A stretch of 44,839 nucleotides of DNA from Clostridia bacterium (GTDB lineage: Bacteria; Bacillota; Clostridia; Oscillospirales; CAG-272): the NCBI GenBank assembly GCA_017444735.1, contig JAFSWB010000066.1, forward strand, positions 1 through 44,839. Reading direction: 5' to 3'. The position numbers and the translations under genes were made by a program. Positions 1 to 25,383 of the stretch are shown here, in pieces (the first letter of the stretch is position 1; each line of letters opens with the position of its first letter). Under the pieces are notes generated by a model. It did not search any database. It saw only the letters and a list, made by a program, of their open reading frames with translations, and was not told the DNA's origin.

Positions 1-60
1 TCCGCGAGTTCAAATCCATCTGTCAAAAACGCAAACCCATCTTTTTCGTACCCGTTTGAA
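1..60. repeat. 60-bp direct repeat, copy 1 (cut by window edge)
   Basis: This stretch matches 269-328 base for base except one C/T difference (47 versus 315), an offset of 268 bp. It carries a tRNA T-loop-like word, GTTCAAATC, but no matching T-stem or cloverleaf. Its outer parts contain the inverted words TTCAAA and TTTGAA. The copy may extend left of the window. Each copy is followed by a different terminator-like hairpin. The two copies bracket hairpin array 1. Confidence 0.9.
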
Positions 61-85
61 AAAAACCGCCGAAAGGCGGTTTTTT
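56..85 (+). terminator. Rho-independent terminator after repeat copy 1
   Basis: Stem CCGCC (66-70), GAAA tetraloop and GGCGG (75-79) are followed by six T (80-85). The A-run before the stem can pair with the T-run, so the hairpin could work on both strands. The gene it ends would lie left of the window. Confidence 0.7.
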
Positions 86-86
86 C

Positions 87-261
87 AGTTATATTCGCCT
101 TCGGCGAGTTATATTGCGTTGCAGTTATATTCGGCTTACGCCGAGTTATATTGCGCTTCGCGCAGTTTAAAGGCGAATATAATATCACTTTGCGGCATCG
201 CCGCAAAATATCACTGTCCCGAAGGGACAATATCACTGCCGTCGCAGACGGCAATATCACT
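87..261. repeat. Hairpin array 1, two inverted halves
   Basis: The left half has four copies of AGTTATATT (87-95, 107-115, 123-131, 144-152). The right half has four copies of AATATCAC (181-188, 207-214, 229-236, 253-260). The right-half spacer is close to the reverse complement of the left. Between spacers lie self-complementary segments of unrelated sequence: CGCC-TTC-GGCG (96-106), a weak TGC-GTT-GCA (115-123), CGGC-TTAC-GCCG (132-143), TGCGC-TTC-GCGCA (152-164), TTGCGGC-ATC-GCCGCAA (190-206), TGTCCC-GAA-GGGACA (215-229) and TGCCGTC-GCA-GACGGCA (237-253). Stems differ in sequence but keep pairing, which points to selection on structure or to copying by fold-back. No gene lies inside. The closest relative in the window is the array at 24782-24964. 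I know no family name for it. Confidence 0.85.
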
Positions 262-268
262 CATAACC

Positions 269-328
269 TCCGCGAGTTCAAATCCATCTGTCAAAAACGC
301 AAACCCATCTTTTTTGTACCCGTTTGAA
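269..328. repeat. 60-bp direct repeat, copy 2
   Basis: This is the second copy of the repeat at 1-60, with 59 of 60 bases the same. It begins 8 bases after the last spacer of hairpin array 1. The pair could be a recombination scar, a long target duplication, or a sequence duplicated together with its downstream hairpin. Confidence 0.9.
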
Positions 329-4679: not shown

Positions 4680-4706
4680 GGGAAACCACCTCCTTTTCCG
4701 CGATAT

Positions 4707-4735
4707 ATTATAGAATATCCGGGAAGGAAAGTCAA
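4707..4735 (-). promoter_or_regulatory. SigA promoter of the nfeD-SPFH operon
   Basis: Read on the minus strand, TTGACT (4735-4730), a 17-bp spacer and TATAAT (4712-4707) lie 28 nt upstream of the GTG start. Confidence 0.85.
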
Positions 4736-4740
4736 TATAC

Positions 4741-4774
4741 GGCTTCGCGCGGGGGGCGGCTTCGCGCGGGGAGC
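4741..4774. repeat. 17-bp tandem duplication
   Basis: GGCTTCGCGCGGGGGGC (4741-4757) is followed directly by GGCTTCGCGCGGGGAGC (4758-4774), one base different. It lies between the nfeD promoter and the terminator of the upstream gene, and is probably a replication-slippage duplication. Confidence 0.8.
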
Positions 4775-4787
4775 GGGGAAATGAAAT

Positions 4788-9168: not shown

Positions 9169-9197
9169 TTGACTTTTTGACGGGAATATGATAATAT
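9169..9197 (+). promoter_or_regulatory. SigA promoter of the 12.5-kb transport operon
   Basis: TTGACT (9169-9174), a 17-bp spacer and TAATAT (9192-9197). The transcript should start near 9204, about 226 nt before the first gene. Confidence 0.8.
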
Positions 9198-9203
9198 GTT
9201 GAC

Positions 9204-9429
9204 ATCTTCCCGGGGCGCGCCGCGAGATCGCGGACAGCGGACCCGGGAAACGCGCCGTTACGGCCCGCTTCGCGGGGAGGAAAACAGCCGGGGATCCGGC
9301 GTTTTATTATTCTCCGCGCGCGCGTGTGCGCGTATGCGGGAGCGGCGCTCCGCTCCCTTCTCCGCGCGGCGGAGAGAGGGAGAAGCAAACACAAAAACAG
9401 CCGGCGATGCCGGCAGAACGGAGAGTGTC
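9204..9429 (+). promoter_or_regulatory. Long structured 5' leader of the transport operon
   Basis: The leader carries several stems: GCCGG-GGAT-CCGGC followed by GTTTTATTATT (about 9287-9312, terminator-like), GAGCGGCGCTCCGCTC, CCGCGCGGCGG and GCCGGCGATGCCGGC. The terminator-like stem ahead of the gene suggests attenuation or mRNA protection. No known riboswitch fold was recognised. Confidence 0.45.
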
Positions 9430-12400
9430 ATGACAAGATCAAAGGGACGCGGGATATTGTCAATCTTCCTGGCCGCGGTCACGGCGATCGGCGTTCTCAC
9501 CCTTCCCTCGCACGCCGACACGGAGAAATCCGCGGCGCAGCAGGAACAGGAGCGGGTGAGCCAGTCGATCCTTGACGTTATCAGGGCGATATCCTACGAC
9601 GACTACGACGAGCTGCACTCCGACGCGCCCCGCGCGACGAAAGAGGTCTCGGTTTACGCCGCGGACGCTTACGACGCGGAGACGACGACGTCGGAGGTCG
9701 CCGCGGAGGAACACGACGGCGTGCGCGCCCTGAAAACGGGAAGCACCGGCAAGGTCACGCTGAAGATCAACGTTCCCGAAACGGCAAGGTACGTGATGAA
9801 GATAGAGTACTGCACCGTGTCGGACAGTATCAACGCGGTGGAGAGGATCCTCTACATAAACGACAAGGTCCCCTTCTCGGAGGCTCGTCTGCTTCAGATG
9901 AAGAAGCTGTGGCGATACGAGCTCGTCGAGCAGGAGGACGGGACGATGCGCTTCCCCGTCGACGGATCGGGGAACGAACTCCGTCCGACGGTCAAGCCCG
10001 AGCACGCCTGGCAGGAATACGTCGTCTCCGACAGAGACGGCCTTCACAACGAGCCGCTCGAATTCTACTTTGAGGCGGGCGAAAACGTGCTGACTTTCCA
10101 GGCGGAGCGCGAGGAAGCGTATTTCGGAAAGATCACGCTCTGTCCCAAGGAGGACAAAAGAACGTACGAGGATCTGAAGGCGGAGTACGCGAGCCGCGGA
10201 TACGGACCCGGCTCCGACGTCATCAAATTTCAGGCGGAGACGCCGTCCGCGGTGTCCGACGGGACGTATTTCCCGAACAACAACAGGACGTCGGCGATCT
10301 CCGAGCCCCAGCATCCGACGAAGTACCTCCTGAACGGCATCGGCGACGGCTCGTCCGGTTACGCCAATGGTCAGTGGACCGAATACACGTTCAACGTCGA
10401 GACGCCCGGCCTTTACACGGTCGTGTTCAGATACAAGCAGTCGTTCTCGTCCGGCGTCTTCGTGTCGAGAAAGATACTGATCGACGGCGAGTCCCCCTGC
10501 GTCGAGTCGGAGAGGGTCAGATTCTACTCCGGCAACGACTGGAGGGTCGAGGAGACGAAATACGGCGACGAGACGCTTGAATTCTACCTCGACCGCGGCG
10601 AACACACGCTCCGCGTCGAGACGACGCTCGGCGACATGGCGGACATCATCCGCAGGGTGGCGTCCGTTCAGAAGAACGCCAACGCCGACTATCTGCAGAT
10701 CCTCCGTCTGACGGGCGCGAACCCCGACGAGTACCGCGATTACGGATTCAAGAGGGTCATGCCCGAGACGGTCAAGGACCTCCTCGCGGAGTCGAAGATC
10801 CTCAACCAGTGCATAACCGAGCTGAGAGAATTCAGCAAGAGCCGGAGCGAAATGACGGCTATGCTCGAACAAGCGGCGAACCTGCTCGAGAAGATGGGAT
10901 CGGACGAGGACGAGATCGCGAAGAACCTCGCCGACCTCAAGACGCAGCTCGGTACGGTCGGAAGCTGGGTCATCACCGCGAAGGACCAGCCCCTGCAGTT
11001 TGACTATATCGTCGTTCAGCCTGCGGGATCGTCCCTTCCCCGGGCGAACGCGAACTTCTTCCAGTCGATGGGTTACGAGTTCGGTCAGTTCTTCGGTTCC
11101 TTCTTCACCGACTACGGCGCGATGGGAGTCTCGGATCTCTCCGACGTGGCGACCTCGAGCCTTGAAGCGTGGACCGCGAGCGGCCGCGACCAGGCGCAGA
11201 TAATAAGAACGCAGATAAACAACAAATTCGCTCCTCAGACGGGAACGGCGGTCAACCTGAAGCTCGTCGCTTCCGACGCGCTCCTTCCGGCGATCCTCGC
11301 GGGGATCGGCCCCGACGTAGCCCTCGAGGGCATGGCGGGCACGACGACTACCGGCGCGTCCGGGGACATCATGGACTACGCGCTCCGCGGAGCGCTCGTC
11401 CCGATCTACGGACCGAAGGCGGAGAACGGCGGCTTCGCCGACTTCCCGGAGATCAAGAAGAGATTCAGCCCGAGCGCGTTCATCAACCTCGACCTTTACG
11501 GCACGATCTACGGACTGCCGGCGTCGCAGGAGTGGGCGATGCTCTTCTGCCGCACCGACGTCCTCGCGGCGCTCGAGCTCGAGATCCCGGAGACGTGGGA
11601 CGACCTGTTCGCCATGATCCCGGTGCTCCAGTTCAACAATATGCTCATCGGTATCGCTCCCGACCTCGACCTGCTCGCGACGTTCACGTATCAGCGCGGC
11701 TCGACGATCTGGGCTGACGACGGCATGAGAGTCAACTTCGACAGCAACGCGTGCCTCGAATCGTTCGACGAGATATCGAGTCTTTACACGCAGTACGGTC
11801 TGCCGATCGCATACAGCTTCGCGAACCGTTTCAGAACGGGCGAGATCCCGGTCGGCATCGGCGGATACGCGGCGACGTACAACTCGATCGTCATTTACGC
11901 GACGGAGCTTTCCGGTCTCTGGGACTTCGCTCCCGTTCCCGGAAGACGGCAGGCGGACGGCACGATAAACAGGACCGTCCAGTCGAGCAGCAACCCCGTC
12001 TCGATGCCGAAGGACTGCCGCGACAAGGAAAGAGCGTGGGAGTTCATGAAGTGGTACACCGACAAGGATTTCCAGTCCTCCTACGGCAACGAATTGGTAG
12101 CGTTGATGGGAGAGGCGGCGAAGTACGCGACGGCGAACCTCGAGGCGCTCAGCGAGATGTCGTGGACGCCGCACGAGTACGAACAGCTCATGATCCAGGC
12201 GCAGTCCCTCGACGGATATCAGTCCTACCCCGGGAAATACTTCCTGAAGAGATATTTCACATTCTCGATCCAGAACGTCTACAACGAGCTGACGGACCCG
12301 ATTGAGACGCTCCTCGGATACGTTCCGACGATAAACAAGGAGATCACGAGAAAGAGAAACGAATTCGGACTCGAATCGCTCGAGGTCGGGCAGACGCTCG

Positions 12401-23086: not shown

Positions 23087-24730
<1,644 letters not shown>

Positions 24731-24732
24731 GC

Positions 24733-24778
24733 AAATAATCAAGGGGGCTTCTCGAAAAGAGAAGCCCCTCGATTATTT
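24733..24778 (+). terminator. Long terminator behind groEL
   Basis: AAATAATC pairs with GATTATTT around an inner GGGGCTTCTC-GAAA-GAGAAGCCCC stem, giving one long hairpin. The A/T outer part makes it usable on both strands. Hairpin array 2 starts four bases later. Confidence 0.88.
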
Positions 24779-24781
24779 GAA

Positions 24782-24964
24782 TGATATCCGCCCCGATTTT
24801 GTCGGGTCGGGTGATATACCTTCGGTATGATATCGCACTTCGTGCGATGATATCCGCCTGCGGCGGATGCATGCAGCCGCGCAGCGGCTGTATATCATGC
24901 CGCGCTTTGCGCGGTATATCATACCGCAAAGCGGTATATCATACTTGCGAAGCAAGTATATCAT
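24782..24964. repeat. Hairpin array 2, upstream of the four-helix-bundle gene
   Basis: Four TGATAT spacers on the left (24782, 24812, 24828, 24848) face four ATATCA spacers on the right (24892, 24916, 24936, 24958). Stems between them differ in sequence but pair perfectly, mostly with 3-nt loops: ACC-TTC-GGT, TCGCAC-TTC-GTGCGA, TCCGCC-TGC-GGCGGA, a central CAGCCGC-GCA-GCGGCTG (24874-24890), CCGCGC-TTT-GCGCGG, ACCGC-AAA-GCGGT and ACTTGC-GAA-GCAAGT. The first left unit (24792-24806) is less regular. Loops on the left (TTC, TGC) are reverse complements of loops on the right (GAA, GCA), so the array is symmetrical about its centre. It has the same 4+4 design as 87-261. It ends 32 nt before the next gene; no promoter is seen between array and gene, so it is probably part of that gene's leader or holds its promoter. 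Confidence 0.9.
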
Positions 24965-24996
24965 TTTCCAACGTAAGAAAAGCGGAGGCAAAAAGT

Positions 24997-25347
24997 ATGC
25001 CCGATAATAAACTTGTTGATTTTTCTTTGGAATTTGCGAAACATATCGTAACAATGGTTGACGGTGTAAAAATGCCTAAAAGTTCATATATGCTCGACCA
25101 ACTCGCACGTTCGGGAACGTCGATAGGAGCAAATATTCATGAAGCGCAGTATGCGCACAGCAGAGCAGACTTCATTGCAAAATTTGAGATCGCTCTGAAA
25201 GAGGCAAACGAAACGGGATATTGGCTCCGATTACTCTATGAGACAGGCAGAATCAGCGAGGAAGAGTACAAAAAAGCTGAAAAAGAGTGCGGAAACATTC
25301 GCAGAATGCTTATTTCATCTTGTAATACTGCTAAAAACAATCAGTAA
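24997..25347 (+). CDS. Four-helix-bundle protein (S23/IVS/Avd-like)
   Basis: The product is 116 aa, normal for this family. The pattern is typical: FSLEFAKHIVTMV in helix 1, QLARSGTSIGANIHEAQYAHSR with the conserved SG-S-IGANI-EA run, FIAKFEIALKEANETGYWL, then a last helix EYKKAEKECGNIRRMLISS. Relatives are encoded in intervening sequences of bacterial 23S rRNA and resemble the Avd protein of diversity-generating retroelements; they are basic pentamers thought to bind nucleic acid. The gene is visibly richer in A+T than its neighbours, with A/T-ending codons, suggesting transfer. The start follows GGAGG. It lies right behind hairpin array 2, which suggests the protein acts on that structure; this is inference. 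No reverse transcriptase or rRNA is near. Confidence 0.88.
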   Translation: MPDNKLVDFSLEFAKHIVTMVDGVKMPKSSYMLDQLARSGTSIGANIHEAQYAHSRADFIAKFEIALKEANETGYWLRLLYETGRISEEEYKKAEKECGNIRRMLISSCNTAKNNQ

Positions 25348-25348
25348 C

Positions 25349-25383
25349 AAAAAAACGCCGCTTCCCGATTCCGGGAAGCGGCG
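25349..25383 (-). terminator. Terminator of the small EF-hand-like gene
   Basis: CGCCGCTTCCC (25356-25366) pairs with GGGAAGCGGCG (25373-25383). On the minus strand seven T follow (25355-25349). On the plus strand no T-run follows, so it may not fully stop the four-helix-bundle transcript. Confidence 0.85.

What the first reader, a model, noticed from the sequence alone, without database searches (positions are those of the whole stretch)
24782..25347. Symmetrical hairpin array joined to a four-helix-bundle protein gene: candidate undescribed element
Seen: eight TGATAT/ATATCA spacers in two inverted groups of four, with stems between them that differ in sequence but almost all pair perfectly, mostly with 3-nt loops. 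Thirty-two nt later comes a gene for an S23/IVS/Avd-like four-helix-bundle protein that is A+T-rich against its neighbours. Known: relatives of this protein live in 23S rRNA intervening sequences and in diversity-generating retroelements, and are thought to bind nucleic acid. Inference: array and protein form one mobile or regulatory unit in which the protein binds the folded array. No reverse transcriptase or transposase is near, so it could depend on a host enzyme.
Basis: partly seen in the sequence, partly recalled or inferred. Interest (0 to 1): 0.88.

Follow-up and report, generated by a model that had tools for sequence, protein, structure and literature searches.

The report
Hairpin word-array mobile gene unit
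Behind a chaperone gene of an uncultured bacterium with gut relatives sits a small stretch of DNA that reads as eight repeats of one short word with hairpins between them, followed by a gene for a small helical protein; relatives show such pairs as parts of small units that have moved between tRNA genes with swappable passenger genes, and I could match them to no described system.

Summary
In detail: window 24782-24963 holds four TGATAT, then four ATATCA, with eight hairpins, and 33 nt on a PF05635/TIGR02436 four-helix-bundle (4HB) gene. The left half scores as Rfam Gut-1, so that 'RNA' is half an array. Relatives show one unit: terminator, inverted word array, 4HB gene, often an ATGA-coupled cargo gene and a conserved right end. 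A 99%-identical unit lies behind tRNA-His in one genome and tRNA-Tyr in another; one relative has the empty site. Array and 4HB stay alike while cargo changes at the 4HB stop. Each 4HB clade has its own word (11 classes, 10 changes, the minimum). Elsewhere in the phylum, and in 10 of 10 plasmid loci read (five phyla), 4HB genes are flanked by 7-nt words, also in 23S rRNA and RNase P inserts. Stem mismatches show no clear G.T excess, which speaks for DNA rather than RNA. Neither reverse transcriptases nor Y1 transposases go with arrays; the moving enzyme is unknown. Protein-word binding is inference.

The parts
23093..24730 (+). groEL (host gene behind which the unit sits)
   Evidence: ORF; homologues in 38 of 40 family genomes. 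Of 30 groEL 3' flanks read, only this one and G020 (L182) have an array there; same-genus G165 (L177) has groEL and a terminator without it in the 170 nt left before its contig ends
24732..24779 (.). terminator-like hairpin directly before the array; in relatives the hairpin at this place belongs to the unit
   Evidence: inverted repeat I2; unit boundary in L053/L065
24779..24858 (+). left half of the array; matches Rfam Gut-1 (RF01706)
   Evidence: 51.1 bits, gathering score 50
24782..24853 (+). four left words TGATAT (24782, 24812, 24828, 24848)
24792..24806 (+). hairpin 1, loop TTTTG
24816..24828 (+). hairpin 2, loop TTC
24832..24848 (+). hairpin 3, loop TTC
24852..24868 (+). hairpin 4, loop TGC
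24874..24890 (+). hairpin 5, loop GCA
24900..24914 (+). hairpin 6, loop TTT
24923..24935 (+). hairpin 7, loop AAA
24941..24959 (+). hairpin 8, loop GAA
24887..24966 (-). right half of the array; Gut-1 model on the other strand, just under its gathering score
   Evidence: 49.6 bits
24892..24963 (+). four right words ATATCA (24892, 24916, 24936, 24958)
24997..25347 (+). four-helix-bundle protein gene (PF05635 / TIGR02436), 116 aa; no cargo gene seen and no right-end motif found after it in this copy
   Evidence: R1 gives no match in the window or in G000
25356..25383 (+). second terminator-like hairpin after the gene; perhaps groEL's original terminator (inference)
   Evidence: I3
60..260 (+). 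second, solo unit: terminator hairpin 60-85 and array with words GTTATAT (88, 108, 124, 145) / ATATCAC (182, 208, 230, 254), no 4HB gene; 60-nt stretches at 1-60 and 269-328 identical in 59 of 60

Best explanation
The window holds one copy, without cargo, of a family of mobile DNA units. A full unit is: terminator hairpin; inverted array of one 7-nt word (here with a short hairpin between successive words); promoter; gene for the cognate 4HB protein; often a cargo gene whose ATG overlaps the 4HB stop codon (ATGA); and a right end of two direct repeats ending CTCTTTCGCA. Units lie in one orientation behind the 3' end of tRNA or tmRNA genes or behind other terminators, and can stack in tandem. 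Solo arrays are internally deleted, MITE-like copies. SHOWN by comparison: the unit's ends, one empty site, presence of near-identical units at different tRNA genes in different genomes, cargo exchange at the 4HB stop, word classes that follow the 4HB clade. INFERRED: the promoter (by eye); that the 4HB protein (Avd/S23-type bundle; its only solved match, 2rld, has five chains) binds the words as they stand between extruded DNA hairpins, perhaps one word per subunit, brings the two inverted halves together, and hands the folded DNA to a recombinase or replication factor of the host; that the targets are places which themselves fold into DNA hairpins. The recombining enzyme is not identified.
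For: One unit: hairpin arrays upstream of 31 of 68 order-level 4HB sites against 8 of 534 control ORFs (Fisher 1e-25); 61 of 71 homologue loci with enough flank carry the TGATAT array. Mobility: L053/L065 99.0% over 1354 bp at different tRNAs; L045/L075 98.9% over 622 bp, ending at the 4HB stop, with other tRNA and other cargo; L078/L090 same site and flanks, cargo exchanged from the 4HB stop on; in 261 of 439 locus pairs homology ends at the 4HB stop (pairs are not independent). Empty site in G189/L225. Right end; model R1 matches 18 places in 8 of 14 genomes, 12 with a 4HB gene upstream. Word and protein: 11 classes, 10 changes, shuffled mean 52. Seven-nt rule. DNA rather than RNA: 18 G.T against 16 A.C among 1734 Watson-Crick pairs in 305 distinct hairpins; the commonest right-half loops (GAA, AAA, GTA, GCA) are the reverse complements of the commonest left-half ones. 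Genome co-occurrence 27 of 31 against 5 of 28.
Against: Linked descent of array and gene would also make words follow protein clades without any binding. Relatives of the protein sit inside transcribed RNA genes (23S rRNA, RNase P), where an RNA role is natural. The window copy has no promoter that I can see, no cargo and no right end, so it may be decayed. R1 gives no match in 6 of 14 genomes, G000 among them; 6 of the 8 genomes with matches had given sequences to the model, so only G020 and G144 are independent finds. Three of 18 right ends have no 4HB gene within 1.5 kb (L216, L218, and the weak L219). One empty site was read at base level. Stems were filtered (at least 4 Watson-Crick pairs, at most 2 mismatches) before counting; the right half alone has 15 G.T against 9 A.C, the left 3 against 7, and 49 other mismatches were seen. 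Four array genomes lack a 4HB hit (G014, G025, G027, G032; G032 holds a fragment, L263). No enzyme found.
Confidence: 0.6

Rival explanations
1. RNA-level element: the array is transcribed and folds as RNA; the 4HB protein, like Avd of diversity-generating retroelements, binds this RNA and hands it to a reverse transcriptase supplied in trans; insertion beside tRNA, tmRNA, 23S and RNase P genes reflects RNA targets.
For: Targets are abundant stable RNA genes; inserts in 23S rRNA and RNase P RNA lie in transcribed genes; Avd resembles this family (PMC10053308, passage read); strong RNA fold; Weinberg et al. 2010 list Gut-1 as 'Y' (certainly an RNA) (PMC2864571, passages).
Against: Reverse transcriptase (PF00078) in 9 of 31 array genomes against 10 of 28 others; no clear G.T excess in stems and no purine preference in GNNA loops (16 against 15 among the listed ones); in tRNA units the array lies between a terminator and what looks like the 4HB promoter (read by eye).
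Confidence: 0.22
2. Regulatory device: the 4HB protein binds its own upstream array (DNA or leader RNA) and controls the 4HB-cargo operon; movement is incidental and done by homologous recombination between tRNA regions.
For: Array directly upstream of the 4HB gene; ATGA coupling to an ORF of 60 or more codons in 30 of 75 loci against 37 of 601 control ORFs; 4HB gene between grpE-like and dnaK-like genes and behind groEL.
Against: Most arrays are solo; near-identical units at different tRNAs with hardly alignable flanks, and a precise empty site, need more than homologous recombination.
Confidence: 0.12
3. Pure parasite of host repeat machinery (slippage or replication-born palindromes, like REP/MITE sequences); the 4HB gene is only a passenger.
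For: Up to 48 Gut-1 matches per genome against at most 9 4HB matches; heptamer repeats are common in bacteria without known cause (PMC4692102, PMC4679880, passages).
Against: Word-clade congruence at the minimum number of changes; 10 of 10 plasmid 4HB loci read have 7-nt periodicity; genome co-occurrence 27 of 31 against 5 of 28.
Confidence: 0.06

Closest known systems
23S rRNA intervening sequences (IVS) with S23/IVP protein, PF05635 (PMC4990558, passages read)
   Same: Same protein family; short element whose ends are inverted repeats; four loci from other parts of the phylum (L296, L302, L307, L308) are inserts in 23S rRNA and show 7-nt periodicity beside the gene
   Different: Window unit is not inside an rRNA gene; has hairpins between words; relatives have cargo, a right end and tRNA/terminator targets
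Gut-1 RNA (Rfam RF01706; Weinberg et al. 2010, PMC2864571, passages read)
   Same: The left half of the window array scores above its gathering threshold; its consensus is three hairpins with UGAAAU words
   Different: Gut-1 describes half an array as a noncoding RNA of human gut only; the full object is two-sided, comes in many word classes, goes with 4HB genes, and its stems and loops look like DNA hairpins
Integron gene cassettes (recalled; only search listing seen)
   Same: Exchangeable cargo (GNAT, methyltransferase, NUDIX, phosphatase), tandem stacking, a conserved site after the cargo, hairpins
   Different: Right end is two direct repeats; each full unit has its own array and 4HB gene; sits behind many tRNAs; attC and integrase not tested
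Diversity-generating retroelements (Avd) (PMC10053308, passage read)
   Same: Avd is a four-helix bundle that resembles this family
   Different: No reverse transcriptase on the window's contig; the only PF00078 match in G000 lies on C58
REPIN/RAYT and IS200/IS605 (recalled)
   Same: Paired inverted hairpin repeats, many solo copies, one protein-coding partner
   Different: No Y1 transposase match in G000 (81% complete); partner is a 4HB protein
Bacterial heptamer repeats: cyanobacterial STRR, Xanthomonas GGGAATC, Beggiatoaceae TAACTGA (PMC4692102 passages, PMC4679880 abstract and passages)
   Same: Tandem 7-nt words, intergenic, patchy across phyla; Planktothrix locus L276 has CCCCAAT words like the Nostoc GGGGATT repeats
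   Different: In PMC4679880 'four helix', 'intervening' and 'S23' and in PMC4692102 'four helix bundle' and '23S rRNA' do not occur; here the words flank 4HB genes as inverted arrays

Membership tests
Gut-1 (RF01706) | score at or above the gathering threshold | tested here: met
   51.1 bits against 50
Gut-1 (RF01706) | acts as a structured RNA | tested here: inconclusive
   18 G.T against 16 A.C mismatches, loops of DNA type: indirect, against RNA
S23/IVP protein family PF05635 | profile match over the curated cut-off | tested here: met
   87.1 bits against 33.8; PDB 2rld 1.5e-27
23S rRNA intervening sequence | lies inside a 23S rRNA gene | tested here: not met
   the only Rfam match over threshold in the window is Gut-1; host is groEL
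23S rRNA intervening sequence | inverted terminal repeats around the ORF | tested here: not met
   in the window both halves lie upstream of the ORF (inverted-repeat score across the gene z -0.8, L003_1); in L095, L097, L105, L109, L129 the gene lies between the halves (by eye)
23S rRNA intervening sequence | cut out by RNase III | not testable with these tools
   needs RNA work
Diversity-generating retroelement | reverse transcriptase beside Avd | tested here: not met
   PF00078 in G000 only on contig C58; window is C34
REPIN/RAYT, IS200/IS605 | Y1 transposase (PF01797) in the genome | tested here: not met
   0 in G000 (81% complete); 14 of 31 array genomes against 12 of 28 others
Integron cassette | attC site and integron integrase | not tested
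   no attC or IntI model was run
Integron cassette | exchangeable cargo between defined sites, tandem stacking | tested here: met
   in relatives, not in the window copy
MITE | terminal inverted repeats and target-site duplication | tested here: inconclusive
   one empty site shares only CAT(A/G) with both junctions

The most novel reading that the evidence does not exclude
A new kind of mobile gene-cassette system: four-helix-bundle proteins are sequence-specific readers of 7-nt word arrays, each clade with its own word; in gut Clostridia the words are spaced by DNA hairpins and form the folded site by which cargo cassettes are taken up, stacked and swapped behind tRNA genes. The same protein-word pairing would underlie 23S rRNA and RNase P inserts, Gut-1, and at least part of the unexplained bacterial heptamer repeats.
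Probability: 0.4. Interest if true: 0.95.

Novelty: new variant of a known kind. Interest (0 to 1): 0.85.

Why it matters
It joins three loose ends: a curated 'RNA' of unknown function (Gut-1), a widespread protein family of unknown function (S23/IVP), and heptamer repeats, for which the passages I read give no settled cause. If the protein reads the words, a short binding assay with swapped words tests all three. It also shows, in gut bacteria, small units that carry acetyltransferases, methyltransferases and other genes, found at different tRNA sites in different genomes, with array and 4HB kept and cargo exchanged at one exact point.

Tried and rejected
Reverse-transcriptase dependence: PF00078 in 9 of 31 array genomes against 10 of 28 without. 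Y1/REP transposase: 14 of 31 against 12 of 28. Phage or plasmid element: 2 of 50,697 phage records match (one at 61.7%, one at 47.4% identity; both unannotated) and 25 of 72,556 plasmid records, those all under 60%. 'Gut-1 is a free noncoding RNA': not supported by mismatch types. An exact-word detector found arrays in only 8 of 29 order-level loci and was replaced by hairpin counting. A regex for right ends found 13, three of them false by eye, and was replaced by hand-picked ends and model R1. Linker length: 7 nt is the mode in word classes B, D, G, H (e.g. D 18 of 27), but not in E (8 nt, 6 of 23, 7 nt 5 of 23), C or J, nor in the TGATAT class, where the script pairs part of the word into the stem (mode 3, 106 of 316). 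The control is weak (34 ORFs in the same small loci, lag 7 best in 15, many near the arrays); the better one is (8 of 537 control ORFs reach 0.72, but only 5 of 68 4HB sites do at that strict setting). Type III toxin-antitoxin (tandem RNA repeats plus protein) was considered and dropped: other protein family, inverted not tandem (recalled). No promoter scan was run; promoters are by eye.

Rows dropped before counts: of 141 4HB loci given a word label, 16 stayed without label and were left out of the tree, 46 of 64 TGATAT rows were left out at random, and three D and all 18 T labels were set by hand. One of the 68 sites is a duplicate (L127 = L136; both without array). The 80 loci are the best of 533 and lean to close relatives. 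Ten of 25 plasmid records were read (H1-H8, H10, H15). Five of 30 loci were scanned for rRNA and other RNA families.

Full report
What is there. Window 24782-24963 holds four copies of TGATAT followed by four of ATATCA, with eight small hairpins between and beside them. The stems differ in sequence and are perfect; seven of eight loops have 3 nt. Any 6-mer followed by its reverse complement within 200 nt reaches 4+4 here and at most 2+2 in 20 shuffles. A terminator-like hairpin stands directly before the array (24732-24779), and 33 nt after the array begins a 116-codon gene of the four-helix-bundle family PF05635/TIGR02436, at GC 0.405 against about 0.6 around it.

The known name of half of it. 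Rfam's Gut-1 (RF01706) matches the left half on the + strand with 51.1 bits (threshold 50) and the right half on the other strand with 49.6. Gut-1's consensus is three hairpins separated by UGAAAU, i.e. half an array with another word. Its authors list it as certainly an RNA, probably not cis-regulatory, from human gut only (PMC2864571, passages).

Relatives. 80 loci with close homologues of the protein were read (best of 533). Of 71 with at least 330 nt upstream, 61 have the TGATAT/ATATCA array in front of the gene; of the other ten, five have an array with another word (L098, L100, L101, L104, L106), three have a split array around the gene (L095, L097, L105), and L043 and L094 have remnants. 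In 44 of the 61 a tRNA gene on the same strand ends 0-75 nt before the first word; in one more, L027, tmRNA stands there. In a sample not chosen by likeness to this protein (TIGR02436 in 147 genomes of the order, 69 with the gene), 31 of 68 sites have five or more hairpins per 200 nt upstream, against 8 of 534 control ORFs in the same loci (Fisher 1e-25). The 68 are 29 top-scoring places returned as loci, 36 in stretches that I fetched from eight genomes, and three of G000.

The unit and its ends. L053 and L065 (two MAGs) share 1354 bp at 99.0%, behind tRNA-His in one and tRNA-Tyr in the other; of the flanks only two pieces of about 60 nt align. A relative (G189, L225) has the same tRNA-Arg/tRNA-His pair followed directly by its own terminator: the empty site. 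The unit of L053 lies exactly between the tRNA's CCA and that terminator, and brings its own terminator; the junctions share only CAT(A/G). After the cargo gene comes a right end: two direct repeats, best seen as TACTTTTGGTCGTTTTTACC and TACTACTTTTAGTCGCTCTTTCGCA; 19 loci were aligned, mean column identity 60%. A sequence model of it (R1) matches 18 places in 8 of 14 genomes; six of the eight had given sequences to the model, so the independent finds are G020 and G144. Of the 18, 12 have a 4HB gene upstream (in L214 across another right end), three are cut by contig ends, three have none within 1.5 kb (L216, L218, weak L219). After the right end stands either a host-type terminator or the next unit; in five of eight tandem cases the next array has another word (L034, L041, L043, L065, L073; same word in L033, L048, L099). 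In L046 (G184) a second right end 545 nt on closes a cassette with no array and no 4HB gene.

Cargo. In 30 of 75 loci the 4HB stop overlaps (ATGA) an ORF of at least 60 codons, against 37 of 601 control ORFs. Among 28 distinct cargo proteins are acetyltransferase, methyltransferase, NUDIX, histidine-phosphatase, LMW-phosphatase and nucleotidyltransferase families (25 of 33 matched families shown); others match nothing. L045/L075 are 98.9% identical from the unit's left end to the 4HB stop, with different tRNA and cargo; L078/L090 share the tRNA site and both flanks but differ in cargo from the 4HB stop on. Among 439 pairs of the 80 loci (at least 80% identity over 400 nt; not independent), homology ends within -5..+8 nt of the 4HB stop in 261, at -30..-6 in 140, at +9..+60 in 21, runs into shared cargo in 11, and ends inside the gene in 6.

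Word follows protein. Several word classes live side by side in one genome (G000: TGATAT, TGAAAT, GCTAAAT). On a tree of 79 4HB proteins, 11 word classes need 10 changes, the minimum; shuffled mean 52.0, 0 of 200 as low. Neighbouring clades have neighbouring words (GTGAAG, ATGAAG, GTGATG). Linked descent alone could give this; that eight copies of the word stay alike while the stems between them drift speaks for a reader of the word (inference).

Seven. Sites without hairpin arrays mostly have tandem words of 7 nt: best autocorrelation lag 7 in 23 of 37 (lags 4-12 tested), and in 21 of 22 with score 0.75 or more; left and right flanks are inverted to each other (z above 4) at 23 of 67 sites, hairpin sites included. 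In 30 PF05635 loci from other parts of the phylum lag 7 is best in 24, the flanks are inverted (z above 4) in 17, and none has a hairpin array. In the 10 plasmid loci that I read of 25 (Bacillota, Spirochaetota, Cyanobacteriota, Bacteroidota, Chloroflexota) lag 7 is best in all, with scores 0.64 to 1.0. Of five phylum loci scanned for RNA families, four are inserts in 23S rRNA and one lies inside RNase P RNA, in a hairpin loop after model position 136. In hairpin arrays of word classes B, D, G and H the unpaired linker is most often 7 nt (D 18 of 27, H 6 of 10, B 10 of 37, G 4 of 9), but not in classes A, C, E and J.

DNA or RNA. Among 305 distinct hairpins of word classes A-E (filtered for at least 4 Watson-Crick pairs and at most 2 mismatches) there are 1734 Watson-Crick pairs, 18 G.T, 16 A.C and 49 other mismatches; left half 3 G.T and 7 A.C, right half 15 and 9. 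An RNA stem should keep G.U and lose A.C. The commonest left-half loops are TTC, TGC, TTT, TAC, TCC; the commonest right-half loops are GAA, AAA, GTA, GCA, their reverse complements for the most part, plus AAC and GNNA loops without preference for a purine at the third place. GNA triloops are known as very stable in DNA (title of Yoshizawa 1997 seen in a reference list; content recalled). The array also lies between a terminator and what looks by eye like the 4HB promoter. This favours a role as DNA; it does not prove it.

Solo arrays and genomes. Gut-1 matches occur in 31 of 59 genomes, up to 48 each. 27 of the 31 hold a TIGR02436 gene, against 5 of 28 without Gut-1 matches (Fisher 7e-8). Of 26 best loci (one a genome) only 4 show a 4HB gene within 1.5 kb, one of them a fragment; 6 of the 22 others are cut within about 320 nt downstream, which leaves 16 of 20 judgeable loci without one. 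ARAGORN puts a tRNA directly before 11 of the 26, and three more look by eye like tRNA or tmRNA ends. These look like MITE-type copies. The window has one at 60-260.

Mechanism. Best reading: mobile DNA units whose 4HB protein reads the words and brings the folded array to a recombinase of the host (0.6). Neither reverse transcriptases nor Y1 transposases go with the arrays; tyrosine and serine recombinases were not tested. The window copy, behind groEL (2 of 30 groEL 3' flanks have an array; the same-genus relative has none in its 170 nt), lacks cargo, right end and a visible promoter.

Known or new. I found no paper that joins these parts in the searches, which cover openly licensed PMC papers only. 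By protein and 7-nt words the unit is kin to 23S rRNA IVSs, but it fails their defining place, so I do not file it there. The phylum of the window is inferred from its relatives' record titles (Clostridia MAGs).

Noticed in passing
window 1-328: Solo array (words GTTATAT/ATATCAC) behind its own terminator, between two 60-nt stretches identical in 59 of 60 that look like the right end of solo units; a near copy stands at the end of contig C43.
   Followed up: partly
L305 1229-2003 (- strand): A PF05635 gene flanked by 7-nt words sits inside an RNase P RNA gene (RF00010, after model position 136, hairpin loop).
   Followed up: partly
L271 2480-2836, L275 1189-1536, L269 3001-3342: 4HB elements sit between cas2 and cas1 in two cyanobacterial plasmids and between hsdS and hsdR in a Monoglobus plasmid; the CRISPR link of '23S rRNA IVP' in PMC10910872 (one figure-legend passage read) may be such insertions.
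   Followed up: no
L095, L097, L105 around the 4HB gene: Between what look like grpE and dnaK (by eye) the 4HB gene lies inside the array, left half before and right half after it.
   Followed up: no
L046 5890-6434: Cassette with terminator, small ORF and right end but no array or 4HB gene, stacked behind a full unit.
   Followed up: no
L239, L240, L242, L248; L041 about 4700-4780: Solo units end in another conserved right end with a T-loop-like stretch (AGAGTTCGAA.TCATACGC...CCCATAGACAAA), by eye.
   Followed up: no
L253 1501-1750: Half array directly upstream of a promoter-like stretch and an ORF that resembles hicA (by eye, not searched).
   Followed up: no
window 9175-9475: A second stretch with 6 hairpins per 200 nt, G+C-rich, no word array seen.
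   Followed up: no
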